This document shows positions 5,547 to 44,797 of a DNA stretch of 64,000 nt, piece after piece. Location of the stretch: NCBI RefSeq assembly GCF_000243115.2, contig NZ_CP007035.1, positions 4,464,001 to 4,528,000 of the forward strand. The letters are read 5' to 3'. The notes under the pieces are model-generated. The model was not told where the DNA came from. It made no database searches and saw nothing but the letters and a program-made list of their open reading frames with translations. The position numbers and the translations under genes are program-made. Position 1 is the stretch's first letter, and each line of letters begins with the position of its first letter. Source of the stretch: Niabella soli DSM 19437 (GTDB lineage: Bacteria; Bacteroidota; Bacteroidia; Chitinophagales; Chitinophagaceae).

Positions 5547-5566
5547 AACGATAAATAATCGACGGA

Positions 5567-7694: not shown

Positions 7695-7702
7695 TTTCAG
7701 GA

Positions 7703-8683: not shown

Positions 8684-8710
8684 TAAAATATTGGACCCGA
8701 CTTCAGGTCA

Positions 8711-8755: not shown

Positions 8756-8817
8756 AGCGTCGGCTGTGTTGCATGGGGCAGCGGATATACTTACCATAAA
8801 GAATTAACAAATCATAA

Positions 8818-30008: not shown

Positions 30009-32504
30009 GTGAAACGGTTGGACGCCGCTTTAATTACAATTTTTCTTCTTGTTGCTTCGCTGTATAGCAAAGGACAGGTTTATGTTGCGCCTATAGGGAA
30101 TGATACCGGCGATGGCTCTGTAACGGCACCTAAGGCTACATTGAATGCAGCCATACGGCAGGTGCGGGAAGAACGGCGGTTGAAAAAAGAAAAAACCGTT
30201 GGTAAGATCCTGCTCCGTGGTGGTACTTACTATTTAGATGAACCGGTATATCTGAGGCCGGAAGATAGCGGTACCCCCTCTGATCCGCTGATAATAGCCG
30301 CCGCCCCCGGACAAACACCTGTTTTGAGCGGAGGTATTTTAATAGAAAACTGGAAGAGAAGTACAGGGCCGGTTAAAGACCTGCCGCAGGCTGCACAGGG
30401 TAAGGTCTGGGTGGCTGATGTGCCCGCTACTGCGGGAGCTATCCCATTTCGCCAGTTGTGGGTAAATGGCAAAAAAGCAATAAAGGCTAAAAGTGCGCCG
30501 GGCAATAGTATGCAGCGCATTCTGAACTGGGATAAGAAAACGGCAACGGCGATTATTCCACTGCATCCGTTTGAACATTTGGAGGTAACCGACGGACTGG
30601 AGTTTTTTATTCACCAGTGGTGGGAAGTAGCCAGCCTGCGCATCCGCAAACTGGAGAAAGCAGGCGACAGTTGCCGTGTTTATCTTTACGAACCCGAAAG
30701 TCGTATTCAGAATGAACACCCCTGGCCCGCGCCCTGGCTTTCAAAAGAAACAGGTAATTCCGCTTATTATCTGAGCAACTCCCTTTCTTTTTTAGATGAA
30801 CCTGGGGAATGGTATTACAACACTGCTACAAGAAAGCTTTATTATTACCCGCGGGCGCAAGAAGATATGACCACTGCGGAAGCGGTAGTTCCCTTTTTGG
30901 AAAATATTTTTGTGGTTGAGGGAACACCGGGGCACCCGGTGGAAAATGTAGTGGTTAAGGGCATCCGTTTTGAGCACAGCGCCTGGAACCGGCCTTCGCT
31001 GCAGGGACACGTGCCGCACCAGGCCGGCTTGTATATGACCGATGCCTATAAATTAAAACCAGCCGGTACACCCGAAAAACCATCGCTGGACAACCAGGCC
31101 TGGGTAGGGCGTCCGGAAGCGGCTGTTGCGGTTTCGTTTGCAAAAAATATCCGTTTTGATGATAACCGTTTTGAGCACCTGGCAGCAACCGGTCTGGATT
31201 TTAAAAAAGGAGTGCAATCTTCCGCCATTACCGGCAATCTCTTTAAAGATATTGGCGGCACAGCCATCCAGGGCGGCTATTTTGGAGATGACGGTGAAGA
31301 GATACATAAACCTTATAATCCTGCCGACCAGCGAGTGGTTTGTGAAAACATCACAATTATCAATAACCTCATCACGGATGCTGGTAATGAAGACTGGGGC
31401 TGCGTAGGCATCGGCATGGGATTTTCGAGGAATATAATGATTGAACATAATGAGATTGAAAATGTCCCCTACTCTGGGATAAGTATGGGCTGGGGCTGGA
31501 CGCCTGCTAAAAATATAATGGAGCAGAACCGCATCCGGTTTAACAAAGTACATCATTACGGCCGGACCAATTATGATTGCGCGGGCATTTATACCCTGAG
31601 TGCACAGCCGGGAACGATAATAGAGGAAAACTATATTGATAGCATTTATAAAGCGCCCTATGCGCACCTGCCCAACCATTGGTTTTATTTGTATACCGAT
31701 GAAGGCTCTTCGGGTATTAATGTGCGCAACAACTGGACACCCGCTCAAAAATATTTGCAGAATAATAATGGTCCGGATAATCATTGGGATAATAATGGTC
31801 CGCAGGTTGCTGCAACGGTGAAAACGAACGCAGGGCTCGAAAGTAATTACCGGGCATTGCTAAAAGAAAAAACAAGCGGCAGCGTTCACCAGGATATCAA
31901 TAAACAACGGAAAGAGCTGATCGAACTGGTGAGCAATAGTAAAAAGACCATTGATGTAAAAAAACTGGAAGCATTCCTGAAGGGGAAAAAAGTGCAGCAG
32001 GAGACGATCAGTAAATGGAATAATCATGTTGTAGTATATGGGTTTGTAGCAGATGCAAATGGATTGCGGGGACAGCTACAAAAGTTATTTCCGGATGTAA
32101 CCGTTAAAGTGTACCAGGACCTGGTGTATGAATTTGACCGGCTGGAACGTTGCCCGGATGCAGGCATAGCAAAGGATTGGACGGACATTATTATGACGGC
32201 CAATCTGGTTGCCGATCCCAAAAAGCAACAGGAGTATCTTGATTACCATGCCACACAATTTGAAAAATGGCCGGAGCTTTCCAGAGGGTTTTGCAACGCC
32301 GATTTTCAGCAATTACGCGTGTTAAAAAACGGGAGACAATTAATGCTGGTGATCAGTATTCCCAAAGGGAAAATGCTGGACGAGCTGAACCCCAAAACAA
32401 CGGAAAATAATCCGCGAATGAATGAATGGAACAAAATCATGAGCGGCTACCAGGAAGGGATTAAGGGAACAAAAAAGGGAGAAACCTGGGTGCTGTTTAG
32501 GTGA
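30009..32504 (+). CDS. Exported GH141-like parallel beta-helix protein fused to an L-rhamnose-mutarotase domain
   Basis: An 831-residue exported protein beginning at GTG 30009 with a signal peptide ending YSKGQ. The N-terminal opening VYVAPIGNDTGDGS and GKILLRGGTYYLDEPVYL is typical of right-handed beta-helix glycosidases such as GH141. The helix runs to about residue 600 with FDDNRFEHLAATGLDF and MIEHNEIENVPYSGISMGWGW. From about residue 720 the chain resembles RhaM-type mutarotases: EYLDYHATQFEKWPEL places a conserved His as in RhaM, and NPRMNEWNKIM resembles its end. The region between is unassigned. GH141 members act on fucosides in rhamnogalacturonan II or on xylan; activity here is unproven. 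Gfo/Idh and symporter genes follow. Confidence 0.75.
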   Translation: MKRLDAALITIFLLVASLYSKGQVYVAPIGNDTGDGSVTAPKATLNAAIRQVREERRLKKEKTVGKILLRGGTYYLDEPVYLRPEDSGTPSDPLIIAAAPGQTPVLSGGILIENWKRSTGPVKDLPQAAQGKVWVADVPATAGAIPFRQLWVNGKKAIKAKSAPGNSMQRILNWDKKTATAIIPLHPFEHLEVTDGLEFFIHQWWEVASLRIRKLEKAGDSCRVYLYEPESRIQNEHPWPAPWLSKETGNSAYYLSNSLSFLDEPGEWYYNTATRKLYYYPRAQEDMTTAEAVVPFLENIFVVEGTPGHPVENVVVKGIRFEHSAWNRPSLQGHVPHQAGLYMTDAYKLKPAGTPEKPSLDNQAWVGRPEAAVAVSFAKNIRFDDNRFEHLAATGLDFKKGVQSSAITGNLFKDIGGTAIQGGYFGDDGEEIHKPYNPADQRVVCENITIINNLITDAGNEDWGCVGIGMGFSRNIMIEHNEIENVPYSGISMGWGWTPAKNIMEQNRIRFNKVHHYGRTNYDCAGIYTLSAQPGTIIEENYIDSIYKAPYAHLPNHWFYLYTDEGSSGINVRNNWTPAQKYLQNNNGPDNHWDNNGPQVAATVKTNAGLESNYRALLKEKTSGSVHQDINKQRKELIELVSNSKKTIDVKKLEAFLKGKKVQQETISKWNNHVVVYGFVADANGLRGQLQKLFPDVTVKVYQDLVYEFDRLERCPDAGIAKDWTDIIMTANLVADPKKQQEYLDYHATQFEKWPELSRGFCNADFQQLRVLKNGRQLMLVISIPKGKMLDELNPKTTENNPRMNEWNKIMSGYQEGIKGTKKGETWVLFR

Positions 32505-32531
32505 ATGGTGAATAGAAAATGGTGAATAGAA

Positions 32532-32544
32532 GCGCCGCAGGCGC
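32532..32544. repeat. Short three-base-loop hairpin
   Basis: GCGCC-gca-GGCGC followed by GCAACATTTGTAG. The same downstream phrase follows the hairpin at 33718-33730, which shows these are copies of one element family. Confidence 0.55.
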
Positions 32545-32593
32545 GCAACATTTGTAGATTCGGGCATAAAATATTTTTAATAAAAACAAACAC

Positions 32594-33667
32594 ATGTTGA
32601 ATATCGGGATTGTAGGATTAGGGGAGGGCCGCAGCACCATGTCGGCCGCATTGCAAAGCAAAAAATTACGGTTGAAAATGATTTGCGATGCCAATGAAGA
32701 ATTATGCAAACAGCGCTGCAGGGAATTCCGGTTTGACCGGTATACCACGCGTTATGAAGAGTTGTTGAATGATCCGGATATTGATATCGTAGCCATTTAC
32801 ACACCCGATCATTTGCATGCACAGCACGTGCAATTGGCATTGGAACATGACAAACATGTAGTGTGCACCAAACCCTTTATCGATAATCTTGCGGATGCGA
32901 AAGCGTTGCTGCAGCTACAAAAGAAAACCGGCAAGAAAGTCTTTGTAGGTCAAAGCTCCCGTTTTTTTGAGCCTTACAAACGGCAGCGGTCTGATTTTGA
33001 AAAAGGCCTGATCGGCGAGCTGATCACCATTGAAAGTCATTATAATGCTGACCATCGTTGGTTTTTAAAAAAGAAATGGGCATTGGAAAAATCGTTTAAA
33101 TGGTTATATGGCGGATTGAGTCACCCGGTTGATTTTATCCGCTGGTACCTGCCGGATATTGAAGAAGTAATGGGGTATGGGATGATCAGTGCCAATGGTA
33201 AAAAAGCCGGATTGAAAAACGAGGACACCATGCACTTTATTTTCCGCAATAAAGACGGACGGGTGGCCCGGGTGAGTGGTGCCTACACCGGTCCGGTGCA
33301 ACCCACGGCTCGCGAGAGTGAGATGAGCTGCATCCTGCGGGGAACGGAAGGCGCCAGCCAGGCAGACTATCATGAGCTGCGGTATGCCATCACCAATAAG
33401 AAAGGCGATCAGCAATTGATTACCTGGGGTGATGAGCAGTTGAACCATTATTTCCGTTTCGAAGGACAAAGCCACCATGCAGGTGAGTATCAGAATTACC
33501 TGGAATATTTTGCAGACAGCATCGCCAACAATACGACGGCCTATCCGGATATGCGTGAGGGGATCGGCACAGTGGCACTGTTGCAGGCGATGGATGAAAG
33601 TTTACAAACACGGCAGCCGGTTCAGATAAAGGCATTGCTGAAGCAGTACGGGCTGGGGAAGTTGTAG
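32594..33667 (+). CDS. Gfo/Idh/MocA-family oxidoreductase
   Basis: A 357-residue NAD(P)-dependent sugar dehydrogenase-type protein without signal peptide. The Rossmann fold opens with IGIVGLGEGRS, followed by DIVAIYTPDHLHAQHV and the catalytic-lysine block VVCTKPF near residue 96 (family consensus EKP). The C-terminal beta-sheet domain includes HRWFLKKKWALEKS and GGLSHPVDFIRWYLPD, with a probable catalytic His in the latter. It lies between the beta-helix gene and a sodium/solute symporter. Such enzymes oxidise or epimerise sugars; D-apiose dehydrogenase is recalled as one member of this superfamily, but nothing in the sequence fixes the substrate. Confidence 0.85.
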   Translation: MLNIGIVGLGEGRSTMSAALQSKKLRLKMICDANEELCKQRCREFRFDRYTTRYEELLNDPDIDIVAIYTPDHLHAQHVQLALEHDKHVVCTKPFIDNLADAKALLQLQKKTGKKVFVGQSSRFFEPYKRQRSDFEKGLIGELITIESHYNADHRWFLKKKWALEKSFKWLYGGLSHPVDFIRWYLPDIEEVMGYGMISANGKKAGLKNEDTMHFIFRNKDGRVARVSGAYTGPVQPTARESEMSCILRGTEGASQADYHELRYAITNKKGDQQLITWGDEQLNHYFRFEGQSHHAGEYQNYLEYFADSIANNTTAYPDMREGIGTVALLQAMDESLQTRQPVQIKALLKQYGLGKL

Positions 33668-33717
33668 AAATAGTGAATGGGAAATAGTGAATGATGAATA
33701 GGAGCTCAACATTTATC

Positions 33718-33730
33718 GCTCCGTAGGAGC
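33718..33730. repeat. Short three-base-loop hairpin
   Basis: GCTCC-gta-GGAGC followed by ATAACATTTGTAG, in the 165-base gap between the oxidoreductase and symporter genes. Confidence 0.55.
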
Positions 33731-33832
33731 ATAACATTTGTAGCTGATAGTAGCACAACAGCACAAGAGTGCGACGCAACCCGGATGCCATCCGCACCAG
33801 GGCCCGGATAAAAAATAAAGAACAAAAAATTA

Positions 33833-35407
33833 ATGAATCATCTTATTTCAAAATTACAACCGATCGATTATGCTATAGTAGTGGTGTATCTGGTCGTGTT
33901 GTTGGTGATCGGCTACAGGGCCAGCTTTGGCAAAAAAAAGAAGCAGGACGAAACCCTGTTCCTGGCAGGCAAATCGCTGAACTGGTATAATATCGGGTTC
34001 AATATGTGGGGCACCAATGTGGGACCCTCGATGCTGCTGGCTTTTGCCAGTATCGGTTATGCCACGGGCATTGTAGCGGGTAATTTTGAATGGTATGCGT
34101 TTGTGTTCCTCATGCTGCTGGCGATGGTTTTTGCGCCAAGGTATCTGGCAAGCAATGTAACCACTATGCCGGAGTTTATGGGGCAGCGTTATGGGGAAGA
34201 CACGCGTAGTATCCTGGCCTGGTATGCCATGGTGAAGATGCTCATCTCCTGGTTGTCGCTCGGTTTGTTTGCCGGGGGCTTCCTGGTCCGACAAATATTA
34301 GGTATTCCCATGTGGCAGTCGGTGATCGTGCTAGTATTGTTTGCCGCGTTGTTTGCCGTGGCCGGTGGATTAAAAGCCATCGCCCGCGTGAATGTGTTCC
34401 AGATGATCCTGCTCATTATTGTATCCTGTATCCTTTGTGTATTGGGTGTTCAAAAAGTGGGCGGACTTTCCGCCTTGTTTGCAAAAACACCGGGTTCTTA
34501 TTGGAGCCTCGTGAAACCTGCGTCAGATGCGGGTTACCCGTGGCCGGCTATCTTGTTGGGTTACCCCGTTTCGGCGGTTGCCTTCTTTTGCACGGACCAG
34601 GCAATGGTGCAATCGGTACTGGGCGCGCGTAACCTGGAGCAGGGGCAGCTAGGTGTTAATTTTATCGGCTGGCTAAAAATATTTTCAATTCCGCTGTTTA
34701 TTATTCCGGGAATTGTTTGCGCCGTGCTTTATCCAAACTTACCGAGCGCGGATGAAGCCTACATGACGATGGTCACCAATTTATTCCCGGCGGGATTGAA
34801 TGGACTGGTGATCGTAGTGCTGATCGCGGTGCTGGTGGGCACTATCGGCTCTTCATTAAATGCATTGAGTACGGTGTTTACGACGGATATCTATGTAAAA
34901 AAGATGAACCCCACGGCAACCAATCGGCAGATTATTAAAGTAGGCCGGCTTACGGTGCTGGCGGGCTGCGGGTTTGCCATATTGATGGCTATTGCTATTG
35001 ACAGCATTAAAGGTCTTAATTTGTTTGATGTGTTCCAGGCCGTGCTGGGCTTTATAGCACCGCCGTTGTCAGCGGTGTTCCTGTTGGCGGTGTTCTGGAA
35101 AAAGACGACGCGCCGGGCGGTCAACTTTACGCTTTCCTGGGGATCGGCCATTAGCCTGGGGATCGGCGTTATTTATTTGTGGGTGCTGCCGGTAAAAGAA
35201 TATCATTTCTGGCCGCATTATTTGCTGTTGTCATTTTTCATTTTCCTGTTGCTGGTGGTACTGGCGGTATTGCTCTCCGTTACGGACCGGCAACCGGTGC
35301 GCACGGCAATCGCTGTACAGGAACTGGCAAAACCCACGCGCCGCGTAAAAATTGCCTGGACGGCTTTATGTATCGTAATGATTGTATTGTATTTAATATT
35401 TGGTTAA
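33833..35407 (+). CDS. Sodium/solute symporter (SSS family)
   Basis: A 524-residue membrane protein with about 13-14 hydrophobic segments. Family blocks are PIDYAIVVVYLVVLLVIGY at the first helix, LFLAGKSLNWYNIGFNMWGTNVGPSMLL, AVAGGLKAIARVNVFQM, CTDQAMVQSVLGARNLEQ and VGTIGSSLNALSTVFTTDIY. This subtype resembles sugar carriers of the SglT kind. It follows the Gfo/Idh/MocA gene by 165 bases and probably supplies that enzyme's substrate. It is distinct in sequence from the symporter at 21006. Confidence 0.9.
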   Translation: MNHLISKLQPIDYAIVVVYLVVLLVIGYRASFGKKKKQDETLFLAGKSLNWYNIGFNMWGTNVGPSMLLAFASIGYATGIVAGNFEWYAFVFLMLLAMVFAPRYLASNVTTMPEFMGQRYGEDTRSILAWYAMVKMLISWLSLGLFAGGFLVRQILGIPMWQSVIVLVLFAALFAVAGGLKAIARVNVFQMILLIIVSCILCVLGVQKVGGLSALFAKTPGSYWSLVKPASDAGYPWPAILLGYPVSAVAFFCTDQAMVQSVLGARNLEQGQLGVNFIGWLKIFSIPLFIIPGIVCAVLYPNLPSADEAYMTMVTNLFPAGLNGLVIVVLIAVLVGTIGSSLNALSTVFTTDIYVKKMNPTATNRQIIKVGRLTVLAGCGFAILMAIAIDSIKGLNLFDVFQAVLGFIAPPLSAVFLLAVFWKKTTRRAVNFTLSWGSAISLGIGVIYLWVLPVKEYHFWPHYLLLSFFIFLLLVVLAVLLSVTDRQPVRTAIAVQELAKPTRRVKIAWTALCIVMIVLYLIFG

Positions 35408-35437
35408 TAGTATGAAAAATAGTTTTTTTTGTTGGCG

Positions 35438-35575
35438 GGCTGTAGTACAGGTATCATCTGCGTTGTGTCACTCACTTGTGCACCAGTGCAAGGGGCAGCT
35501 TTCTTTGCTTTCAGGTAATAAAAGGCACGTCGTCATTCCGAACGCAGTGAGGAATCTCGCCCTCAATGGAAACGT
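35438..35575. repeat. Repeat-derived leader before the second GH78 gene
   Basis: 35531-35561 is a half copy of the dispersed repeat (CGTCATTCCGA, then GAGGAATCTCG). Upstream, a GTTGTGTCACTCACTT stretch is related in inverted orientation to 13408-13424. The reading frame happens to stay open through it. Confidence 0.5.
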
Positions 35576-35630
35576 CGTTTCCCGGCTGATGTCTTCACAC
35601 ACCACCAAATCTGCCATGGCCCGTGTCCGC

Positions 35631-37820
35631 ATGCGCCTTTCGCCATGGCCCGTGTCACCACGTGCCATCAAAACTTTCATTCTCCTTTGCGTCTTCGCGT
35701 CTTTGCGGTTAACCAGCGCTGCTCAAACCTGGATCTGGTATCCCGGCGATTACGAGATATGGCTGGCCAATCAAATGCAGAACCGGCGCACCGAACGGGG
35801 TACTTTCTTTCCGGTATTCTGGAAGGTGGATAGTCATTATCCGCTGATGGATTTTCATAAAATAGTGGAGCTCAATCAACCCGAAACGGTGCGTATTTAT
35901 GCGGAAGGGAAATACAATATAAAACTAGATGGGAAACCCTTTGAGGGCACTCCGGCTATGATCACGGTTCCGGCAGGGAAACACAAGCTCAATGTGAAAG
36001 TGTTTAATCAGGCCACGCCGCCGGCAATTTATGTTGAGGGAAAAACAATTAAAAGTGACAGCACTTGGTTGGTAACTTTTGAAGATAAGGAATGGATCGA
36101 TGAATCGGGAAAGACCTCTGATGTTTCTACCACCAAATGGCTGCAGGCCGGGCAATGGAATTTTAATACGCCGGCGCAAAGACCTTCGCTGTTTAAATTA
36201 CCCACACAACCGGTCCAGGCAGTAACCTCTCAAAAAAACGGGAATAATCTGCTGGTAGACTTTGGAAAAGAAACTTTTGGTTTTGTAAAGTTAAAAGGCG
36301 TTCAGGGCAAAGGCAGACTGACTGTGTATTTCGGCGAAAGTAAAGAAGAAGCGCTGGACCCGGAGCATGCCGAAACCCTGGACCGGATTGATATAGATCA
36401 GAAAACTTCAAAAGATACCGTCCTGCAATTATCCAAAGCATTCCGGTATATCAATATTGTTCCCGGGGGGTCGGTAAAAGTCAAAGGCGCATCTATGTTA
36501 TATGAATACAGTGATCTGCCGGATAAGGGAGGTTTTAAATGCAGTGATGAAGAAATTAATAAAATTTACGAGGTGGCAAAATATACGTTGCACCTGAGCA
36601 CCCGCGAATTCTTTATCGACGGCATAAAACGCGACCGCTGGATCTGGAGCGGAGACGCATACCAGAGTTACCTGATGAATTATTATTTAATGAATGATAA
36701 TGCTACGGTAACCCGCACCATGTATGCATTGCGTGGCAAAGATCCCGTTACCAGTCATATCAACACCATCATGGATTATACGTTCTATTGGTTCCTTGGT
36801 ATCTATGATTATTATCTTTATTCAGGCGATAAAAGTTTCATAGTACAAAACTATGACCGTATGAAGAGTCTTATGGATTATGTGCTGGGCCGCAGGAATA
36901 AAGACGGATTACTGGAAGGGCTCCCCGGCGATTGGATCTTTATCGACTGGGCGACAGGGCTGAGCAAGAAAGGGGAGGTTAGTTTTGAGCAGTTGTTATT
37001 TGCGCGCAGCCTGGAAACAATGGCATTGTGTTCCGGACTAGTGAATGAAAAAGATGCTGCTGCAAAATATCAATCGCTGGCAGCAGACATAAAGAAAAAA
37101 TTGTTTGACTATTACTGGAATGAGCAGAAGCAGGCCCTGGTGCACAGCCGGATCAATGGCAAGCCAACTGATAATGTAACCCGCTACGCCAATATGTTCG
37201 CGGTGTTCTTTGATTATTTTAATGGACAACAAAAAGCTGCTGTAAAAAACTCAGTGCTGCTCAACAAAAACGTGCCGAAGATCACAACGCCTTATATGCG
37301 CTTTTATGAGCTGGAAGCCTTGTGTGCGTTGGGTGATCAGGGTATTGTACTGAAAGAAATGAAGGATTACTGGGGTGGCATGCTGCGGTTGGGCGCTACG
37401 TCGTTCTGGGAAGAATATGATCCTTCTAAAAAAGGGGCGGAGCATTACGCCATGTACGGACGCAAATATGGGAAAAGTCTTTGTCATGCCTGGGGTGCCA
37501 GCCCCATCTATCTCCTGGGTAAATATTACCTCGGGATAAAGCCCACAGCGCCGGGTTATGTGCAATACACGGTGGCGCCGGTATTGGGCGGCTTGCAATG
37601 GATGGAGGGGGCGGTTCCTACTCCTGCGGGAAATATTAATATGTATTGCAGTACATCTGAGATCAGGATCAGCGCTCCGGTTGGAACAGGGAAACTGGTT
37701 ATTACCAGCAAAACCCAGCCTGAATGTAAAGAGGGTACTATTGTGAGTAAAGGAAATAATGTGTATGAGTTAACAATAGAGAAAAATAAGGAATACAAGG
37801 TTTTGTATAAAGCGATTTAA
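35631..37820 (+). CDS. Exported GH78-like alpha-L-rhamnosidase
   Basis: I start the gene at ATG 35631, giving 729 residues and a signal peptide ending LRLTSAAQ. In-frame starts at 35412 or 35616 would translate repeat sequence. The chain has an N-terminal beta domain (TWIWYPGDYEIWLANQMQ), a LLVDFGKETFGFVKLKG block, then a six-hairpin domain with FFIDGIKRDRWIWSGDAYQ and GATSFWEEYDPS. In canonical GH78 the first of these reads DCPQRDER with a catalytic Glu; here that Glu is replaced, while the second Glu block is kept. It belongs to a recognised variant group and may act on a rhamnoside with different surroundings. It is followed by a GH127 gene. Confidence 0.82.
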   Translation: MRLSPWPVSPRAIKTFILLCVFASLRLTSAAQTWIWYPGDYEIWLANQMQNRRTERGTFFPVFWKVDSHYPLMDFHKIVELNQPETVRIYAEGKYNIKLDGKPFEGTPAMITVPAGKHKLNVKVFNQATPPAIYVEGKTIKSDSTWLVTFEDKEWIDESGKTSDVSTTKWLQAGQWNFNTPAQRPSLFKLPTQPVQAVTSQKNGNNLLVDFGKETFGFVKLKGVQGKGRLTVYFGESKEEALDPEHAETLDRIDIDQKTSKDTVLQLSKAFRYINIVPGGSVKVKGASMLYEYSDLPDKGGFKCSDEEINKIYEVAKYTLHLSTREFFIDGIKRDRWIWSGDAYQSYLMNYYLMNDNATVTRTMYALRGKDPVTSHINTIMDYTFYWFLGIYDYYLYSGDKSFIVQNYDRMKSLMDYVLGRRNKDGLLEGLPGDWIFIDWATGLSKKGEVSFEQLLFARSLETMALCSGLVNEKDAAAKYQSLAADIKKKLFDYYWNEQKQALVHSRINGKPTDNVTRYANMFAVFFDYFNGQQKAAVKNSVLLNKNVPKITTPYMRFYELEALCALGDQGIVLKEMKDYWGGMLRLGATSFWEEYDPSKKGAEHYAMYGRKYGKSLCHAWGASPIYLLGKYYLGIKPTAPGYVQYTVAPVLGGLQWMEGAVPTPAGNINMYCSTSEIRISAPVGTGKLVITSKTQPECKEGTIVSKGNNVYELTIEKNKEYKVLYKAI

Positions 37821-37930: not shown

Positions 37931-38021
37931 CGTCATTTCGACAAGTCCGCTGAAGGCGGATGAGGAGAAATCTCATAAGGCTGAAGATTTCTCTCTCCGT
38001 TCCACTGCGTTCAAAATGACG
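37931..38021. repeat. Dispersed CGTCATTTCGA repeat, full copy
   Basis: A 91-base element beginning CGTCATTTCGA and ending CAAAATGACG, with inner GAGGAGAAATCTC and GATTTCTCTC arms. An in-frame ATG at 38016 falls inside its right terminus, so the next gene should start later. Confidence 0.68.
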
Positions 38022-38039
38022 CTTAATTTAATAGAGAAC

Positions 38040-40064
38040 ATGAAAAAATTAATATTAATCATTACAATAGCCTGTTGTACTTCGGGCACGGTTGGGCTCT
38101 TCGCCCAGCAGGGTTTAATAAATACAACCCGCAGTCCCTATGCGGCTTTAACTACCCTGGGTCTGGGGGACGTCCATTTTACCAATGGCTTTTGGGCCGA
38201 GCGTTTTGCGGTTTGCCGGGAGTCGATGGTGCCCACACTTTGGCGTACTTATACCAGCGATACGATCTGCTACTCTTTTGAAAATTTCAAGATCGCAGCA
38301 GGGTTAGAAAAAGGCCGCTTCCGTGGACCTTCTTTCCATGATGGTGATTTTTATAAAACATTGGAGGCTGTCGCTGCGCTGTATGCATCTACTAAAGACC
38401 CGCAATTAAACAACTGGATGGAGATGGCCATAAATGTAATCGGTAAAGCTCAGCGTGCTGATGGCTATATCTATACCAAAAATATTATTGAACAAAAAAC
38501 AACGGGGCAGTCAAAAATGTTTGATGACAAGCTCAGTTTTGAGGCTTATAATTTTGGGCACCTGATGACCGCTGCCTGTGTGCATTACCGGGCAACAGGC
38601 AAAACGGACCTGCTGAATATTGCAAAAAAAGCTGCGGATTTCCTGATTGGATTTTATACAAAAGCCACGCCGGAACAGGCCCGTAATGCCATCTGCCCAT
38701 CGCATTATATGGGACTTGCAGAGTTATACCGCACCACCCGTGAAAAAAAATACCTGGATCTTTTAACAAAGCTGATTGACATCCGCGGCACTGTGGAAGG
38801 TACTGATGATAATAGCGATCGTGCTCCTTTCCGGGATATGAAGCAGGTGGTAGGACACGCCGTTCGAGCCAATTATCTGATGGCCGGCGTTGCCGATCTG
38901 TATGCGGAGGAGGGGGATAAAACTTTATTGAAGACATTGGACACTCTTTGGCACAATGTTATCCTGACCAAAATGTATGTAACCGGCGGCTGCGGCGCAT
39001 TGTACGACGGTGTTTCCGTGGATGGTACTTCCTATAATCCGGATACGGTCCAGAAAATACACCAGGCCTATGGAAGAAGCTACCAATTGCCTAATTTCTC
39101 CGCGCATAATGAAACCTGTGCCAATATCGGGAATGTGCTATGGAACTACCGGATGTTTTTGCTGACAGGCGAAGAAAAATATTTCGATATTGTAGAGCTG
39201 GCTTTGTACAACAGCGTGCTGAGCGGGATCAGTATGGATGGCACCAAATTTTTTTATACCAATCCCCTGGCACATACGGCTACATACCCCTACCATCTGC
39301 GCTGGGAAGGGGGCCGCGTTCCATATATCAGCAAATCCAATTGCTGTCCGCCCAATGTGGTACGTACCATTGCAGAAGTAAGCAACTATATGTATAGCGT
39401 GGGGGATAATGGGTTGTATTTTAATATGTATGGCGGCAATGAACTGCATACAAAGCTAAAAGATGGCAGCGCCTTTTCCCTGCGCCAGACAAGCAATTAT
39501 CCGTGGGATGGTGCGGTGTCCGTTGTGATCAACAAGGCGCCGGTTACCTCTGTGCCACTTCATTTCCGGATCCCCGGCTGGTGTAAAAAAGCGAGTGTAA
39601 AAATTAATGGTAAAATAATCAATGCAAATATCATCGGCGGAAAATTTTTTGTGCTTGACCGGAAATGGGAGAAGGGAGATAAGATAGACCTGGCGCTTGA
39701 CATGCCTGCAACGCTGATCGAATCGAACCCGATGGTGGAAGCAACGCGCAACCAGGTAGCGGTGAAACGCGGTCCGGTCGTGTATTGTATGGAATCTGCC
39801 GATATGAGCAGGAAGAATATCTTTAATGTAGCCATACCATCGGGCATACAATTAAAACCGGTGCAGATGAAAATAGCGAACGGTAATGTTGTGGGGCTGA
39901 CGGGCCAGGCGGCACTAATGGATCAGGGAGACTGGGCGAGCCAATTGTATAAAGAAGTTAATGATAAAGAAAAACCGGTAACGGTGAAGCTGATTCCCTA
40001 TTACGCCTGGGCCAACAGGGGCGAAGGAGATATGACGGTGTGGATGCCGTTGATAAGAAAATAA
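38040..40064 (+). CDS. Exported GH127 family glycosidase (beta-L-arabinofuranosidase-like)
   Basis: A 674-residue exported protein; ATG 38040 gives signal peptide MKKLILIITIACCTSG onward to LFAQQ. It shows the GH127 (formerly DUF1680) pattern: FWAERFAVCRESMVPTL, GRFRGPSFHDGDFYK, VGHAVRANYLMAG, the acid block NETCANIGNVLWNYRM and the zinc/cysteine block KSNCCPPNVVRTIAE near residue 440. GH127 uses a Cys nucleophile with zinc held by Cys and Glu, and those residues are present. Known activities are beta-L-arabinofuranosidase and related sugars of rhamnogalacturonan II. It precedes the RuBisCO-like cassette by 80 bases on the same strand. Confidence 0.9.
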   Translation: MKKLILIITIACCTSGTVGLFAQQGLINTTRSPYAALTTLGLGDVHFTNGFWAERFAVCRESMVPTLWRTYTSDTICYSFENFKIAAGLEKGRFRGPSFHDGDFYKTLEAVAALYASTKDPQLNNWMEMAINVIGKAQRADGYIYTKNIIEQKTTGQSKMFDDKLSFEAYNFGHLMTAACVHYRATGKTDLLNIAKKAADFLIGFYTKATPEQARNAICPSHYMGLAELYRTTREKKYLDLLTKLIDIRGTVEGTDDNSDRAPFRDMKQVVGHAVRANYLMAGVADLYAEEGDKTLLKTLDTLWHNVILTKMYVTGGCGALYDGVSVDGTSYNPDTVQKIHQAYGRSYQLPNFSAHNETCANIGNVLWNYRMFLLTGEEKYFDIVELALYNSVLSGISMDGTKFFYTNPLAHTATYPYHLRWEGGRVPYISKSNCCPPNVVRTIAEVSNYMYSVGDNGLYFNMYGGNELHTKLKDGSAFSLRQTSNYPWDGAVSVVINKAPVTSVPLHFRIPGWCKKASVKINGKIINANIIGGKFFVLDRKWEKGDKIDLALDMPATLIESNPMVEATRNQVAVKRGPVVYCMESADMSRKNIFNVAIPSGIQLKPVQMKIANGNVVGLTGQAALMDQGDWASQLYKEVNDKEKPVTVKLIPYYAWANRGEGDMTVWMPLIRK

Positions 40065-40144: not shown

Positions 40145-41431
40145 ATGAATTTAGATACAGGACACGATGCTTCATCGCTACGGGAAGCAGAACGCATAAA
40201 AGCGGTTTATTATATAGAGACGCCTTATGAGCCGGAAGCTGCTGCAGCAGTGCTGGCGGGGGAGCAGTCATCGGGGACTTTCGTGGCAGTGCCGGGAGAA
40301 ACGGAAGCATTAAAGCAGCGTTTCGCGGCACGGGTGGAAAAAGTGACACTTTTGGAAACAGTGCAGCAGCCGGCTATTCCGGGAGCCATAAGTAAAACGG
40401 GTGTCTACAACCGGGCAAGGGTGGAGGTTTCCTGGAGCATTGAAAATTTTGGTTATAATCTGCCCGTAATGCTATCAACCCTGCAGGGGAATTTATACGA
40501 GATCACCCAGTTTACGGGGTTAAAGCTGATGGATATTGAATTACCGCCATCATTCGGTGCTCATTTCAAAGGGCCGGAATTTGGTGTGGAAGGATGCCGT
40601 AAGCTGACGGGTGTTGCCTCCCGGCCGTTGATCGGAACGATCATCAAACCCTCTGTCGGTTTATCGGTAACAGAAACGGCCGACCTGGTAAAGACCTTGG
40701 CGGCGGCCGGTATCGATTTTATAAAGGACGATGAATTATTATCCTCATCGGCCAATTCAAAATTTGAAGACCGGGTGGCCGGAATCATGAAGGTGATTAA
40801 TAAGCATGCGGATAAAACGGGCAAAAAGATCATGTATGCCTTTAACCTTAGCGGGGAAATGGATGAGATGCTCCGGCGCTATGAAACAATTGTAAAACAC
40901 GGGGGCACCTGTGCTATGATCAGCATTAACAGTGTGGGCTTAAGCGGGGTTAAAAAGATCTGTGATCAGCGGCAACTGGCTATACATGCGCACCGCAACG
41001 GCTGGGGCATGCTTACACGCCATCCTCTACTGGGAATCGATTTCAGGGCTTACCAGAAAATATGGCGTCTGGCAGGTGTTGATCAACTACATGTAAACGG
41101 AATTCAGAATAAATTCTGGGAAACGGATGACAGCGTTGTGGCTTCTATTAATGCCTGTTTAACCAAACTATTTGATCAACAAAATGTGCTGCCCGTTGTA
41201 TCCTCAGGGCAGTGGGGCGGACAGGCTTTTGAAACCTGGCAACGTACACAAACGCAGGATCTGCTCTATATGGCGGGCGGCGGCATACTGGCCCATCCCA
41301 TGGGACCTGCCGCAGGCGTTACGGCGTTGCAGCAAGCCTGGAGTGCGGCTGTTGAAGGGAGTACACTACAGGAGGCTGCAGCGCAATATAGGGAGTTTGG
41401 AAAAAGCGCGGAAAAATTCGGAGGAAAATAG
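40145..41431 (+). CDS. RuBisCO-like protein, likely 3-oxo-isoapionate-4-phosphate decarboxylase (OiaX-like)
   Basis: A 428-residue form IV RuBisCO-like protein, cytosolic. The key positions of the RuBisCO active site can be followed: Lys168 in IIKPSVGLS, Lys194 with Asp196 and Glu197 in DFIKDDELL (carbamate/metal motif), His283 and Arg284 in HAHRNGWG, Lys323 in the loop-6-like HVNGIQNKFWE, Ser354-Gly355, and the phosphate-binding glycines in MAGGGILAHP. A full set suggests a metal-dependent enolisation chemistry on a phosphorylated substrate. The gene starts four bases before a DUF1537 kinase, the pairing described for apionate catabolism (OiaX with OiaK). There the product would be L-erythrulose 1-phosphate and CO2. 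Carboxylation of ribulose bisphosphate is not expected. Family certain, reaction inferred. Confidence 0.85.
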   Translation: MNLDTGHDASSLREAERIKAVYYIETPYEPEAAAAVLAGEQSSGTFVAVPGETEALKQRFAARVEKVTLLETVQQPAIPGAISKTGVYNRARVEVSWSIENFGYNLPVMLSTLQGNLYEITQFTGLKLMDIELPPSFGAHFKGPEFGVEGCRKLTGVASRPLIGTIIKPSVGLSVTETADLVKTLAAAGIDFIKDDELLSSSANSKFEDRVAGIMKVINKHADKTGKKIMYAFNLSGEMDEMLRRYETIVKHGGTCAMISINSVGLSGVKKICDQRQLAIHAHRNGWGMLTRHPLLGIDFRAYQKIWRLAGVDQLHVNGIQNKFWETDDSVVASINACLTKLFDQQNVLPVVSSGQWGGQAFETWQRTQTQDLLYMAGGGILAHPMGPAAGVTALQQAWSAAVEGSTLQEAAAQYREFGKSAEKFGGK

Positions 41432-41434
41432 TGC

Positions 41435-42742
41435 ATGCAACAAACGGGAAAAAATAAATTACTGGCTTTCTATGGCGATGATTTTACCGGTGCTACCGAT
41501 GCGCTGGAATGTATCTGTAAAGCGGGAGCCAAAGCCCTGCTGTTTATGGAACTGCCGCAGCAGCTCGATGCAGAGCGGCTGAAAGACCTCGATGTGATAG
41601 GTATTGCCGGGAAAACAAGGTCGCTACCGGTTGCGGGGATGAAAGCAATCCTGAGCGAAGCATTTGAAAAAATAAAAGCAGCAGGAGTAAGGCAGGTACA
41701 TTATAAAGTGTGCTCCACATTTGACTCATCTCCGGCTATCGGGAGTATTGGATGTGCAATGGAAGTTGGGCAGGCTGTTTTTAATACGAACACAATACCG
41801 GTTTTGGGTGGGGCACCATCATTGGGCAGGTATTGTGTTTTTGGAAATCTTTTTGCTGGAATGGGGACGGGGGGCAACAGGGAAATGTACCGGCTGGATC
41901 GGCATCCGTCCATGAGCAAACACCCGGTAACCCCTGCGGACGAAAGCGATTTGCGACTGCACCTCTCCCGGCAATTAAGCAGGACCTTCGGGTTGATCGA
42001 TATACTACAGCAGGATAAGCCGGTGCAGGAATGGAGTGCTACACCTGACGGGGATGCGGAAGTGATACTGATTGATGCCCTGTATGGGCGACAGTTGCCA
42101 AAGATCGGCGAATGGCTGGACACTGGGGTCCCGGGCGCTATCGTATTTTCGGTAGGAGGTTCGGGGGTGGAAACAGCATTGGGCGCTTACTGGAACCGGA
42201 CGGGGATCTTGCAACGAAAAGAGCAATGGCCCGCCGTTGCTGTAGCGGACCCGCTGCTGGTGGTATCCGGGAGCTGCTCTCCTGTAACGGCGAAGCAAAT
42301 CGCTTATGCGCGGTCTTGTGGATTTAATGAAGTGATCATCGATGCGATCAGCGTTTGTAATAATGGCGTGCCTTCCAATGTATTCGAAGTAATAAATAAA
42401 GCGTTAGCGTCCGGCAGTAGTGTGATCGTGCATACGGGCAGTAAAGCTGAAGAAAATGTACCCTCAGAAAAATTAGGAACGGCATTGGGTACGATCGTAA
42501 AACAGGTACTGTATCACAATAAGCTGAAACGCGTGGTGATTGCCGGCGGAGATACCAGCAGCTACACGGCCAGGGCGATGGAAATAGCAGCGGTTGAAAT
42601 GATCGCCCCAATCGTCACCGGCGCGCCGCTTTGCCGGGCTATTTCATCAAATAAATATATTGATGGCCTCGAATTGAATTTTAAAGGGGGGCAGGTAGGC
42701 GATGAAGATTATTTTGAAGTGTTGCGGGCAGGCAGAGAATAA
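41435..42742 (+). CDS. DUF1537 four-carbon-acid-sugar kinase family, likely 3-oxo-isoapionate kinase (OiaK-like)
   Basis: A 435-residue kinase of the DUF1537 family. Motifs are FYGDDFTGATDALE at the N-terminus, IAGKTRSLP, HYKVCSTFDSSPAIGSIG (in threonate/erythronate kinases this block reads more like K-x-DSTLRGN), GSCSPVTAKQIAYA, VVIAGGDTSSYTARAME and LNFKGGQVGDEDYF at the ATP site. It begins four bases after the RuBisCO-like gene and so is translated with it. In the described route the kinase phosphorylates 3-oxo-isoapionate before decarboxylation. A different branched or four-carbon acid is possible. Confidence 0.83.
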   Translation: MQQTGKNKLLAFYGDDFTGATDALECICKAGAKALLFMELPQQLDAERLKDLDVIGIAGKTRSLPVAGMKAILSEAFEKIKAAGVRQVHYKVCSTFDSSPAIGSIGCAMEVGQAVFNTNTIPVLGGAPSLGRYCVFGNLFAGMGTGGNREMYRLDRHPSMSKHPVTPADESDLRLHLSRQLSRTFGLIDILQQDKPVQEWSATPDGDAEVILIDALYGRQLPKIGEWLDTGVPGAIVFSVGGSGVETALGAYWNRTGILQRKEQWPAVAVADPLLVVSGSCSPVTAKQIAYARSCGFNEVIIDAISVCNNGVPSNVFEVINKALASGSSVIVHTGSKAEENVPSEKLGTALGTIVKQVLYHNKLKRVVIAGGDTSSYTARAMEIAAVEMIAPIVTGAPLCRAISSNKYIDGLELNFKGGQVGDEDYFEVLRAGRE

Positions 42743-42759
42743 TTGAAAAGACGAATTAA

Positions 42760-42772
42760 GCTCCATCGGAGC
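42760..42772. repeat. Short three-base-loop hairpin
   Basis: GCTCC-atc-GGAGC in the 75-base gap after the DUF1537 kinase gene. Confidence 0.5.
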
Positions 42773-42817
42773 AAAATATCTATATAAAAAGAACATTTAT
42801 TTGAAAAAAATATAAAA

Positions 42818-43483
42818 ATGGCAGCATCAAAAACATTAGGATTGATCCACACATCGGCCACCCTGGTGCCGGTATTTGATGAACTATGCAGGAAACATAT
42901 TCCGGACGTTAAGGTTTTTAATATTGTGGATGACAGTCTCATTAAAAATACCATTGCCTGTGGCAAACTGACGCCCCAAACGGCAAAGCGGGTAGTAGGA
43001 TATGCAAATGCAGCAGAAGAGGCGGGAGCTGACTACATAATGTACACCTGTTCCTCTATTGGCCCGGCGGTGGAAACGGCAGCGGGTTTAACGGGTGTGC
43101 CGGTGTTACGGGTAGATCAGCCAATGGCAGATGCTGCAATAGCCGCGGGCAGCCGGATCGGTGTGGTGGCTACCTTGTCAACCACCCTGGAACCCACGTC
43201 AGACCTGGTGCGCCGTAGGGCAGTTGCGGCGGGGAAAGAGGTAACGATCCTCTCCCGGTTATGTGAAGGTGCTTTTGAAGCCTTAATGAAGGGAGATGCC
43301 GCAACACATGACGCGGTTGTAGCAGCCGCTTTAAAGCGGCTGGTGGATGAGGTAGATGTAATAGTATTGGCACAGGCCTCCATGGCGCGCGTGGTGAGCG
43401 GTTTGCCGGATCAGGAAAAGAAAGTGCCCATCCTTGCCAGCCCGCCCATTGCAATGGAGTATTTAGCAAAACTGTTGGGATAA
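42818..43483 (+). CDS. Asp/Glu/hydantoin-racemase superfamily enzyme with one catalytic Cys
   Basis: A 221-residue cytosolic protein of the Asp/Glu racemase fold. The first catalytic position is Cys78 in YTCSSIGPAVE. The second, normally Cys in a GCT/LGC-like block of the C-terminal half, reads LAQASM with Ala187. A two-thiol racemase is therefore unlikely. Related single-Cys members include arylmalonate decarboxylase, although there the Cys sits at the second position. Placement between the RuBisCO-like/DUF1537 pair and a BASS carrier gene (four bases away) implies a role in the same acid-sugar route, for example isomerisation or decarboxylation of a branched acid. The function is unknown. 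Confidence 0.78.
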   Translation: MAASKTLGLIHTSATLVPVFDELCRKHIPDVKVFNIVDDSLIKNTIACGKLTPQTAKRVVGYANAAEEAGADYIMYTCSSIGPAVETAAGLTGVPVLRVDQPMADAAIAAGSRIGVVATLSTTLEPTSDLVRRRAVAAGKEVTILSRLCEGAFEALMKGDAATHDAVVAAALKRLVDEVDVIVLAQASMARVVSGLPDQEKKVPILASPPIAMEYLAKLLG

Positions 43484-43486
43484 ATC

Positions 43487-44797
43487 ATGCAAAAATTGTA
43501 TAAGAGCTGCTTTTATGGATCTTGCATCGCAGCAGCGGTTTTGCTGGCAGGGCTCCTGTTGCAACAGCCGGCAATTGTAAAACCATGTGCTATCATAACG
43601 GCCGTTGCTTTTGCATTAGGGCTCGGTGCCTTTCCTTTATTAAAGGGATACCGGTATACCGCGTGGATCATTGTAGCCGTGGTTGCAGGAATGGTTTACC
43701 CGCAGGCGTTTTTGAACTGGGGACCCATCAACCTGCGCGATAAAACACTGATACTGGTTATTATTCAGTTGGTCATGTTTGGTATGGGCACCCATATCAG
43801 CATCAGGGATTTTAAAGGATTAGCCTATACGGGCAAAGGCGTGCTGATCGGACTGCTTTGTCATTTTTCAGTGATGCCGATGATGGGCTTGCTGCTTACA
43901 AAAGTATTTCACTTCGAACCGGAAATAGCTGCCGGCGTGATATTGATCGGGAGTTGCAGCAGCGGGCTGGCATCAAACGTAATGGTATACCTGGCGCGTG
44001 CGAATCTTGTATTATCTGTTATTGTTACGGCGATGGCTACCCTGGCGGCCCCATTTCTTACGCCGTTGCTAATGAAAATACTGGCAGGTACGCTCATCGA
44101 AGTAAGATTTGTGGATATGATGGTGGAGATCATAAAGATCGTGATCGTGCCGATTGGAGCCGCGCTGCTACATGATTATTTGAAAACCGCTTCTGAGCAA
44201 ACGCGCCGGCGTATTTATATAACGGCTGTTGTCTGCACCGCCTATGCTGTATTCCTTTTAGTGGTAGCATATCCTTTCCTGGAGCGTAATGGGGCAAGTC
44301 ATGCGGCACTGCAGTCGCTGGAACTGTCCGGGTTTTTGACCTGCGCAGTAAGCGGCGGCGTGGTCTATCACCTCATATATAATCGTTTTGAAAAAATTGA
44401 TAAAATAATGCCTTATGTCTCGATGTTTGGTATTATTTATTTTACGATGGTCACCACTGCTGCCGGCCGGGATAATCTGATGAAGATCGGCCTGCTGTTA
44501 TTTGTTGCTTCGGTTATTCATAATGCCGCGGGCTATTTTTTTGGTTACTGGTTGAGTCGTTTGTTTGGCCTGGATAAAAATTCCAGTCGTACTATCGCCT
44601 TTGAAGTTGGCTTACAAAATGGCGGCATGGCCAGCGGCCTTGCGGGGACTATGGGTAAGCTGGGTACGGTGGGGTTAGCGCCGGCCGTATTCAGTCCCTG
44701 GATGAATATCAGCGGAAGTATCTTAGCTAATTACTGGCGGCGCAAACCTGTTGAGGTGAAAGGTACGCAAGAGGAGGCTAAAGCTTTTAAGAATTAA
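43487..44797 (+). CDS. Bile acid:sodium symporter (BASS) family carrier
   Basis: A 436-residue membrane protein with about 11 hydrophobic segments. The BASS pattern is visible in VIIQLVMFGMGTHISIRDFKG, HFSVMPMMGLLL, GVILIGSCSSGLASNVMVYLA (the discontinuous sodium-site helix) and FEVGLQNGGMASGLAGTMG. An extra hydrophobic N-terminal hairpin of about 70 residues precedes the core. BASS carriers move organic anions, including small branched hydroxy or keto acids. Here the operon encodes enzymes for a phosphorylated branched acid, so uptake of an apionate-like anion is a reasonable guess. It closes the four-gene cassette. Confidence 0.85.
   Translation: MQKLYKSCFYGSCIAAAVLLAGLLLQQPAIVKPCAIITAVAFALGLGAFPLLKGYRYTAWIIVAVVAGMVYPQAFLNWGPINLRDKTLILVIIQLVMFGMGTHISIRDFKGLAYTGKGVLIGLLCHFSVMPMMGLLLTKVFHFEPEIAAGVILIGSCSSGLASNVMVYLARANLVLSVIVTAMATLAAPFLTPLLMKILAGTLIEVRFVDMMVEIIKIVIVPIGAALLHDYLKTASEQTRRRIYITAVVCTAYAVFLLVVAYPFLERNGASHAALQSLELSGFLTCAVSGGVVYHLIYNRFEKIDKIMPYVSMFGIIYFTMVTTAAGRDNLMKIGLLLFVASVIHNAAGYFFGYWLSRLFGLDKNSSRTIAFEVGLQNGGMASGLAGTMGKLGTVGLAPAVFSPWMNISGSILANYWRRKPVEVKGTQEEAKAFKN

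What the first reader, a model, noticed from the sequence alone, without database searches (positions are those of the whole stretch)
40145..44797. RuBisCO-like protein with DUF1537 kinase, single-Cys racemase-fold enzyme and BASS carrier
A RuBisCO-like protein with an apparently complete active-site set stands four bases from a DUF1537 kinase, the pair known as OiaX and OiaK in D-apionate catabolism. The two added genes, a racemase-fold enzyme and an anion carrier, are not part of that scheme as I recall it and may define a variant route that takes up an acid such as apionate directly. Lactonase and oxidoisomerase genes are not in the window.
Basis: partly seen in the sequence, partly recalled or inferred. 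Interest (0 to 1): 0.78.

Follow-up and report, generated by a model that had tools for sequence, protein, structure and literature searches.

The report
Likely pathway for eating aceric acid
A bacterium of plant-matter degraders carries four neighbouring genes, one of them a relative of the carbon-fixing enzyme RuBisCO, that probably let it eat L-aceric acid, a rare branched sugar acid from plant cell walls for which we found no described breakdown route.

Summary
In detail: a RuBisCO-like protein (RLP), DUF1537 kinase, racemase-fold enzyme and BASS carrier stand in tandem at 40145-44797. The substrate reading changes. The gene immediately upstream passes the curated cut-off for aceric acid hydrolase (1151 vs 950 bits), in a rhamnogalacturonan-II (RG-II) type locus. 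RLP, racemase-fold enzyme and carrier occur in exactly the same 8 of 395 Bacteroidota genomes; all 8 have an aceric acid hydrolase (20 of 395 overall), on the same contig within 55 kb. Of 80 genomes with the closest RLPs, 73 have the hydrolase over cut-off. The apionate oxidoisomerase domain is absent from 47 of 47 RLP genomes sent. I propose a dedicated L-aceric acid route: import, aldose-to-ketose isomerisation, 1-phosphorylation, RLP cleavage; the ketose of aceric acid is a close analogue of 3-oxo-isoapionate. The substrate is inferred from genomics; no step is shown biochemically. Which C-C reaction the RLP performs, and the isomerase role of the racemase-fold enzyme, are the weakest parts.

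The parts
38016..40064 (+). GH127 aceric acid hydrolase (BT1003-type): proposed to free L-aceric acid from RG-II
   Evidence: NCBIfam NF049879 1151 bits, cut-off 950; ends 80 bases before the RLP
40145..41431 (+). RuBisCO-like protein, proposed aceric ketose 1-phosphate transcarboxylase/hydrolase or decarboxylase
   Evidence: PF00016 220.6 bits; OiaX model 517 of 700 bits; clade sister to OiaX; active-site residues
41435..42742 (+). DUF1537 (four-carbon acid sugar kinase family) kinase, proposed to phosphorylate C1 of the aceric acid ketose
   Evidence: SBD_N + NBD_C; OiaK model 383 of 700 bits; next gene after the RLP in 73 of 79 related loci with a called RLP frame
42818..43483 (+). Asp/Glu racemase-fold enzyme with only the first catalytic Cys, proposed aceric acid aldose-ketose isomerase
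   Evidence: PF01177 99.8 bits; C78 invariant, second site Ala; close relatives in the same 8 of 395 genomes as the RLP
43487..44797 (+). BASS-family carrier, proposed aceric acid importer of the inner membrane
   Evidence: PF01758 over cut-off, TIGR00841 and PanS models below cut-off; same 8 of 395 genomes
30009..37820 (+). Upstream part of the gene row: GH141-like, Gfo/Idh/MocA oxidoreductase, sodium symporter, rhamnosidase-like gene
   Evidence: Pfam; same order in related Chitinophagaceae loci such as L002 and L008
44970..51660 (+). Downstream GH2 (beta-galactosidase type) and GH106 (alpha-L-rhamnosidase) genes
   Evidence: Pfam
1129..10302 (+). Separate module that resembles D-apiose use (reading from recall): Fucose_iso_C isomerase, split transketolase, periplasmic binding protein, DUF2291, ABC transporter, FGGY kinase
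   Evidence: Pfam; binding protein 46% identical over 257 residues to the one in a Rhizobium oiaX locus; but the kinase passes a glycerol kinase subfamily cut-off, 562 against 498 bits

Best explanation
The four genes are a dedicated dissimilation cassette for L-aceric acid (3-C-carboxy-5-deoxy-L-xylose), fed by the GH127 aceric acid hydrolase just upstream in an RG-II type locus. Proposed course: (1) the BASS carrier imports the free acid; (2) the racemase-fold enzyme, with one catalytic Cys left, moves a proton between C2 and C1 and turns the aldose into its 2-ketose, HOCH2-CO-C(OH)(COOH)-CH(OH)-CH3; (3) the DUF1537 kinase phosphorylates the new primary hydroxyl at C1 (the aldose has no primary hydroxyl, so isomerisation must come first); (4) the RLP acts on this beta-keto acid, a close analogue of 3-oxo-isoapionate 4-phosphate. 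The RLP may decarboxylate it to 5-deoxy-L-xylulose 1-phosphate (then a RhaD-type aldolase to DHAP and acetaldehyde), or transfer the carboxylate and hydrolyse it to 3-phosphoglycerate and L-lactate. I lean slightly to the second, because the RLP keeps residues that annotated OiaX proteins have lost and because the cassette would then need no dedicated aldolase. Shown: gene content, order, family scores, co-occurrence, no match to the apionate oxidoisomerase domain. Inferred: substrate, every reaction, direction of transport.
For: Aceric acid hydrolase over its cut-off 80 bases upstream. In 395 evenly drawn Bacteroidota genomes the RLP clade (69-100% identity; every other match 37% or less), the racemase-fold enzyme (66-100%) and the carrier (61-100%) each occur in the same 8 genomes, and all 8 are among the 20 with hydrolase over cut-off; hypergeometric 9e-12 by genome, 7e-9 by genus, ignoring deeper kinship; hydrolase and RLP on one contig, 33 to 54,505 bases apart, in 8 of 8. 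Of 80 genomes with the closest RLPs, hydrolase over cut-off in 73. Hydrolase gene directly 5' of the RLP on the same strand in 26 of 79 loci with a called RLP frame, behind several different upstream genes. No PGDH_C match in 47 of 47 RLP genomes sent, out of 81 at hand; found in 3 of 3 positive-control records chosen because such a gene stood or seemed to stand by their RLP. Racemase-fold gene and carrier not found within about 5-6 kb of 24 of 24 other OiaX-like loci. RLP clade sister to annotated OiaX, 99/96. RhaD-type aldolase in 50 of 50 RLP genomes sent. RLPs of this general group convert 3-oxo-isoapionate-4-phosphate by decarboxylation or transcarboxylation/hydrolysis (passage in PMC6302742).
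Against: No biochemistry. Aceric acid hydrolase also marks RG-II use in general, so the link could be to another RG-II component. 12 of the 20 hydrolase genomes in the sample lack the RLP, one of the window's own genus among them; at most two or three hydrolase candidates per genome were scored there, so 20 may be too low. In 40 of 80 loci the hydrolase is not within the fetched flanks, and one genome (G010, a MAG) has no convincing hydrolase. L022 and L026 carry the RLP without kinase, racemase-fold gene or carrier within 10 kb. Racemase-fold relatives at 45-49% identity with the same motifs occur in rhizobia away from an RLP, so the motif is not specific to this pathway. A PGDH_C-type gene is near only 9 of 24 other OiaX-like loci, so its absence near the cassette alone would say little. 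Croceibacterium has the RLP-kinase pair beside a GH127 that scores only 87 bits to the aceric model. No homologue of the window's L-lactate dehydrogenase lies in the 80 loci at E 1e-20. The OiaX and OiaK equivalog cut-offs are not reached.
Confidence: 0.75

Rival explanations
1. D-apionate catabolism of OiaK/OiaX type: apiose is oxidised to apionate, rearranged, phosphorylated by the kinase and decarboxylated by the RLP.
For: Nearest named relatives of RLP and kinase are OiaX and OiaK; apiose is an RG-II sugar (passage in PMC12282258) and an apiosidase-like gene lies upstream; RLP clade sister to OiaX.
Against: Both proteins below the equivalog cut-offs, although the kinase of a Rhizobium oiaX locus also misses its own; no PGDH_C match in 47 of 47 RLP genomes sent, 3 of 3 positive controls; a module that looks like another apiose route in the same window (assignment from recall); racemase-fold gene and carrier have no place in that scheme as I recall it.
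Confidence: 0.12
2. Same substrate, but the RLP is a plain decarboxylase: 5-deoxy-L-xylulose 1-phosphate is then cut by rhamnulose-1-phosphate aldolase to DHAP and acetaldehyde. This is a rival only to the last step that I favour.
For: OiaX itself is named a decarboxylase; RhaD-type aldolase/dehydrogenase in 50 of 50 RLP genomes sent, here about 78 kb downstream behind a permease gene; DHAP shunt precedent for 5-deoxyribulose 1-phosphate (passages in PMC10986504).
Against: Annotated oiaX proteins have D/G/Q where this clade keeps RuBisCO-like E/N/H (6 of 24 outside loci are D/G/Q, 18 of 24 and 80 of 80 of this clade are E/N/H); TIM and RpiB genes beside the RLP in 2 of those 6 and 0 of the 18; RhaD is expected anyway in a rhamnose user.
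Confidence: 0.4
3. The cassette serves another RG-II sugar acid (DHA, Kdo, or an oxidised methyl sugar), and the link to aceric acid hydrolase only reflects RG-II use.
For: The hydrolase is an RG-II marker; other RG-II type genes (GH78-like, GH106, BT_1020-like) are also near in many loci.
Against: Aceric acid is the only RG-II sugar with a carboxylate on a branch carbon (recalled chemistry); DHA and Kdo are 2-keto-3-deoxy acids, usually cut by aldolases (recalled), and a DHDPS-family gene stands at 26874-27815; the hydrolase is the commonest identified direct 5' neighbour of the RLP, 26 of 79.
Confidence: 0.13
4. The racemase-fold enzyme is not the isomerase but an epimerase, mutarotase-like or repair enzyme; the isomerase is the AP_endonuc_2 (xylose-isomerase-like) gene at 24142-25011 or a general sugar isomerase.
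For: Homologues of that gene lie in 12 of 80 cassette loci, in L020 directly before the RLP.
Against: Not found in the fetched flanks of the other 68 loci at E 1e-20, whereas the racemase-fold gene is in 75 of 80.
Confidence: 0.4

Closest known systems
OiaX / OiaK pair of D-apionate catabolism (NF042437, NF042436)
   Same: RLP directly followed by DUF1537 kinase; same branched beta-keto hydroxy acid chemistry expected; sister clade in the tree
   Different: Scores 517 and 383 against cut-offs of 700; no PGDH_C match in the genomes sent; carries a racemase-fold enzyme and BASS carrier not found near 24 other OiaX-like loci; active-site E/N/H instead of the D/G/Q of annotated oiaX
RLP transcarboxylase/hydrolase of the apiose pathways (known to me through a passage in PMC6302742)
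   Same: Proposed reaction type on the analogous phosphate
BT1003 aceric acid hydrolase of Bacteroides thetaiotaomicron
   Same: The gene upstream belongs to the aceric acid hydrolase family by curated cut-off
   Different: The cassette would add the use of the freed sugar. B. thetaiotaomicron itself was not searched; the control genome Bacteroides ihuae matches the hydrolase model (cut-off not told per genome) and has no RuBisCO-family match
PDB 3nwr, a RuBisCO-like protein
   Same: Nearest solved relative by sequence, 395 bits, same catalytic residues at the positions compared
   Different: Asn instead of Ser at the RuBisCO K177 position; function not stated in the listing

Membership tests
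OiaX (NF042437) | Score at or above the curated cut-off of 700 | tested here: not met
   517.1 bits; a Rhizobium oiaX protein scores 777.8
OiaX (NF042437) | Phylogenetic placement inside annotated OiaX | tested here: not met
   The Bacteroidota/Verrucomicrobia group (99/95) is sister to the two annotated OiaX rows used (99/96), tree of 64 rows
OiaK (NF042436) | Score at or above 700 | tested here: not met
   382.6 bits; but the kinase of a Rhizobium oiaX locus also misses it, 471.7
D-apionate pathway | Apionate oxidoisomerase (PGDH_C domain gene) in the genome | tested here: not met
   0 of 47 RLP genomes sent, 3 of 3 chosen positive-control records. That PGDH_C is the oxidoisomerase is my recall plus its place in oiaX operons
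Aceric acid hydrolase (NF049879), upstream gene | Score at or above 950 | tested here: met
   1151.1 bits, the only one of six matches in the genome over the cut-off
RuBisCO superfamily, form IV | Catalytic and N-terminal domains; not a carboxylase form | tested here: met
   PF00016 and PF02788 over cut-off; form III, large-subunit and MtnW models far below cut-off
Asp/Glu/hydantoin racemase | Family model | tested here: met
   PF01177 99.8 bits, cut-off 31
Asp/Glu/hydantoin racemase, two-base mechanism | Two catalytic Cys | tested here: not met
   C78 invariant, second site Ala in 76 of 76 aligned sequences; that these are the canonical sites is recalled
BASS / PanS carrier | PF01758; PanS equivalog cut-off 400 | tested here: inconclusive
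   PF01758 met; PanS 209.9 and TIGR00841 193.3 of 326.3 not met
RG-II degradation locus | RG-II-type enzymes clustered | tested here: met
   Aceric hydrolase, GH106, GH78-like, GH2; apiosidase-like, BT_1020-like propeller and SusCD just upstream. That these families mark RG-II is partly recalled
Aceric acid catabolic enzymes | Activity on aceric acid and its ketose phosphate | not testable with these tools
   Needs enzyme assays

The most novel reading that the evidence does not exclude
The four genes alone are a complete route for L-aceric acid: carrier, a new aldose-ketose isomerase built on the Asp/Glu racemase fold with a single catalytic Cys, a new DUF1537 kinase specificity, and a RuBisCO-like enzyme that re-adds the carboxylate it has just removed and hydrolyses the product to 3-phosphoglycerate and L-lactate.
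Probability: 0.28. Interest if true: 0.88.

Novelty: new variant of a known kind. Interest (0 to 1): 0.77.

Why it matters
[quoted passage not shown] its hydrolysis by gut bacteria is known, but in the papers searched I found no description of what happens to the freed aceric acid. The finding gives a testable route, a new role for the RuBisCO superfamily, a candidate new activity for the racemase fold, and a genomic marker that splits RG-II degraders into those that probably use aceric acid and those that may not. By record titles the cassette is spread over Chitinophagaceae, Cytophagales, Sphingobacteriaceae and Flavobacterium, with a few members outside Bacteroidota.

Tried and rejected
Apionate route: rejected as the main reading. 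alone was not informative, since no control genome rang, so the search was repeated with three records as positive controls. Methionine salvage and true RuBisCO: rejected by model scores. Aldolase as part of the cassette: none among the gene families that recur in most loci, which are RLP, kinase, racemase-fold gene and carrier; RhaD was tested as a stand-in. L-lactate dehydrogenase at 22738-23973 as support for lactate as a product: no homologue in the 80 loci, so not used. Context of racemase-fold relatives in rhizobia gave no functional hint. PDB searches with the racemase-fold sequence or profile gave only weak matches, mostly to hydantoin, glutamate and aspartate racemases. Promoter and terminator scan: numbers as in shuffles. 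The DUF2291 lipoprotein of the window hardly aligns with that of a Rhizobium oiaX locus, though the binding protein does. The FGGY kinase of the supposed apiose module passes a glycerol kinase subfamily cut-off, which weakens that reading. Paper searches for aceric acid: 40 of 56 listed; 10 of 18 listed; for apionate, apiose and RLP: 11, 18, 55 (15 of 23 listed), 92; for the aldolase: 95. No listed title or abstract start was about aceric acid catabolism beyond its hydrolase; the library holds open-licence papers only.


Full report
What is there. The window lies at 4464001-4528000 of a single 4,697,343-base contig; the nearest RLP relative is from a Niabella MAG (92% identity) and the window groups with Niabella in the tree, so the host is probably a Chitinophagaceae member. 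Four + strand frames form a tight row: RLP 40145-41431, DUF1537 kinase 41435-42742, Asp/Glu racemase-fold protein 42818-43483, BASS carrier 43487-44797. The RLP is the only RuBisCO-family match in the genome.

The neighbour that changes the reading. The gene before the RLP, 38016-40064, is a GH127 protein that scores 1151 bits against NCBIfam 'aceric acid hydrolase' (cut-off 950); of six matches in the genome it alone passes. Around it stand rhamnosidase-like, GH141-like, GH2 and GH106 genes, and just upstream an apiosidase-like gene, a BT_1020-like propeller gene that runs into the window start, and a SusCD pair. BT1003 is described as an aceric acid hydrolase of RG-II depolymerisation (passage in PMC5698469). 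The window also has an isomerase, split transketolase, binding-protein/ABC transporter and FGGY kinase at 1129-10302, which by my recall of the apiose literature looks like the transketolase route for D-apiose; the binding protein is 46% identical to one in a Rhizobium oiaX locus. But no protein of it passed an NCBIfam model that names apiose, and the kinase passed a glycerol kinase subfamily cut-off, 562 against 498 bits. This module is context, not proof.

The cassette is a real unit. All 80 were analysed. By tblastn the kinase is in 76, the racemase-fold gene in 75 and the carrier in 75. Of the five without racemase-fold gene, L019, L031 and L035 are short or end soon after the RLP; L022 and L026 lack it in a full 10 kb flank. 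By tblastn the hydrolase lies within the fetched flank of 40 of 80; it is the gene immediately 5' of the RLP on the same strand in 26 of 79 loci with a called RLP frame, behind several different upstream genes: GH78-like, GH106, DUF5703, a sugar-isomerase-like gene and others.

The cassette goes with the hydrolase. Hydrolase over cut-off occurs in 45 of 50 and 28 of 30 of the same genomes, 73 of 80. The other seven: G004, G027, G030 and G039 have partial matches (303, 157, 836 and 911 bits), G073 and G080 full-length matches under the cut-off (917 and 854 bits), G010 nothing better than E 5e-20. In an even draw of 395 Bacteroidota genomes the hydrolase is over cut-off in 20 (only two or three candidates per genome were scored, so this may be a lower bound). 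The RLP clade is in 8 at 69-100% identity; every other RuBisCO-family match is at 37% or less (125 genomes have some match). The racemase-fold enzyme is in the same 8 (66-100%; four further genomes have only weak hits, 29-33%), the carrier in the same 8 (threshold 1e-60). All 8 are among the 20, on the same contig, 33 to 54,505 bases apart. Chance of 8 in 20 of 395 is 9e-12, of 6 genera in 10 of 170 is 7e-9; these figures ignore deeper kinship. The link is one-way: 12 of 20 hydrolase genomes, one of the window's genus among them, lack the RLP. One of the 8 RLP matches (G423) has a TGA inside the matched stretch.

Why not apionate. In two Rhizobium oiaX loci, RLP and kinase are followed by triose-phosphate isomerase, RpiB and a PGDH_C gene, which fits the D-apionate scheme as I recall it. 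PGDH_C has no match in 47 of 47 RLP genomes sent, of 81 at hand; G021 and G025, whose RLP stands alone, are among the 47. It was found in 3 of 3 control records, chosen because such a gene stood or seemed to stand by their RLP. Near the 24 other OiaX-like plasmid loci examined it is found in 9, so local absence is common; the absence from whole genomes is the stronger point. Racemase-fold gene and carrier were not found near any of the 24. These 24 were picked by hand from 366 matching records. Some of these records have a racemase-fold relative far from the RLP (Rhizobium C104 and TAL182, Croceibacterium). The tree of 64 rows (window, Rufibacter, 42 of the 80 loci, 15 plasmid rows, 5 outgroup rows) puts the Bacteroidota/Verrucomicrobia rows in one group, 99/95, sister to the two annotated OiaX rows, 99/96.

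Chemistry, by reasoning. L-Aceric acid is CHO-CHOH-C(OH)(COOH)-CHOH-CH3. It has no primary hydroxyl, so a kinase of this family, which by recall acts on terminal hydroxyls of oxo acids, needs the 2-ketose HOCH2-CO-C(OH)(COOH)-CHOH-CH3. That is 3-oxo-isoapionate, HOCH2-CO-C(OH)(COOH)-CH2OH, with CH(OH)CH3 for CH2OH. One enzyme is missing between free sugar and kinase, and one unexplained enzyme is in the cassette: the racemase-fold protein. Its first catalytic Cys (C78) is invariant and the second is Ala in all 76 aligned sequences; moving one proton between neighbouring carbons needs one base, racemisation two. This role is inference.

Which reaction the RLP does. [quoted passage not shown] OiaX-like RLPs fall into two residue classes: D40/G116/Q316 in 6 of 24 outside loci, all six annotated oiaX in their records, and E40/N116/H316 in 18 of 24 and in 80 of 80 aligned sequences of this clade. 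Of the 24 only three were scored here: L119 (D/G/Q) 778 bits, L121 and L122 (E/N/H) 453 and 473, cut-off 700. TIM and RpiB genes, expected after a decarboxylase, stand beside 2 of the 6 and 0 of the 18; among loci with a PGDH_C-type gene it is 2 of 3 against 0 of 6, too few to settle it. Pyruvate kinase or enolase genes stand near 4 of the 18 E/N/H loci, which would suit 3-phosphoglycerate. For aceric ketose 1-phosphate the hydrolase mode gives 3-phosphoglycerate and L-lactate, the decarboxylase mode 5-deoxy-L-xylulose 1-phosphate, for which a RhaD-type aldolase is at hand in 50 of 50 RLP genomes sent. I lean to the first at about 5 to 4.

An independent lineage. A Croceibacterium plasmid carries RLP and kinase beside a GH127 gene, and a 55% identical racemase-fold gene followed by an MFS carrier elsewhere on the same 200 kb circle. 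This repeats the pairing of racemase-fold enzyme with a carrier. But its GH127 is not an aceric acid hydrolase by score (87 bits), so it supports the module, not the substrate.

Papers. I saw passages only of PMC12168206, PMC12282258, PMC5698469, PMC6302742, PMC10176493 and PMC10986504, and search listings otherwise. The primary apiose (Carter 2018) and B. thetaiotaomicron RG-II (2017) papers were not read; what I say of them beyond those passages is recalled. PMC10176493's reference list also names an RLP oxygenase of a D-hamamelose pathway, a further reaction type that I could not test here.

Noticed in passing
L014, L033, L034, L036, L041, L051, L053, L076, L078 (5' of the cassette): Beside the cassette in Sphingobacteriaceae and some others stand, in varying combinations, a MaoC-type dehydratase, a solute-binding-like protein, a Gfo/Idh/MocA oxidoreductase and an MFS carrier (one representative each scanned) and, in four loci, two proteins that look like CoA-transferases (by eye). 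It may be another acid route tied to RG-II; unexplained.
   Followed up: partly
L137 6980-7678, L138 6980-7663, L139 6980-7684: Rhizobial relatives (45-49%) of the racemase-fold enzyme share the single-Cys and AQASM motifs but stand near FAD oxidoreductases or ABC transporters, with no RLP annotated within 7 kb; their function is open.
   Followed up: partly
L058: A locus titled Williamsia (Actinomycetota) carries a Bacteroidota-type gene row and groups with Bacteroidota in the tree; probably a mislabelled or mixed MAG.
   Followed up: no
G423 C1:2384921-2386165 (L094): The RLP match in one sampled genome has a TGA inside the matched stretch; possibly a decaying copy.
   Followed up: no
L133 4995-6239: Paraburkholderia sprentiae has an OiaX-like RLP next to an SMP-30/gluconolactonase-like gene and an ABC transporter, with no DUF1537 kinase found within 5 kb.
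   Followed up: no
window 24142-25011 (-) and L020: A xylose-isomerase-like gene recurs near the cassette in 12 of 80 loci; it could serve another RG-II sugar or be the isomerase in some hosts.
   Followed up: partly
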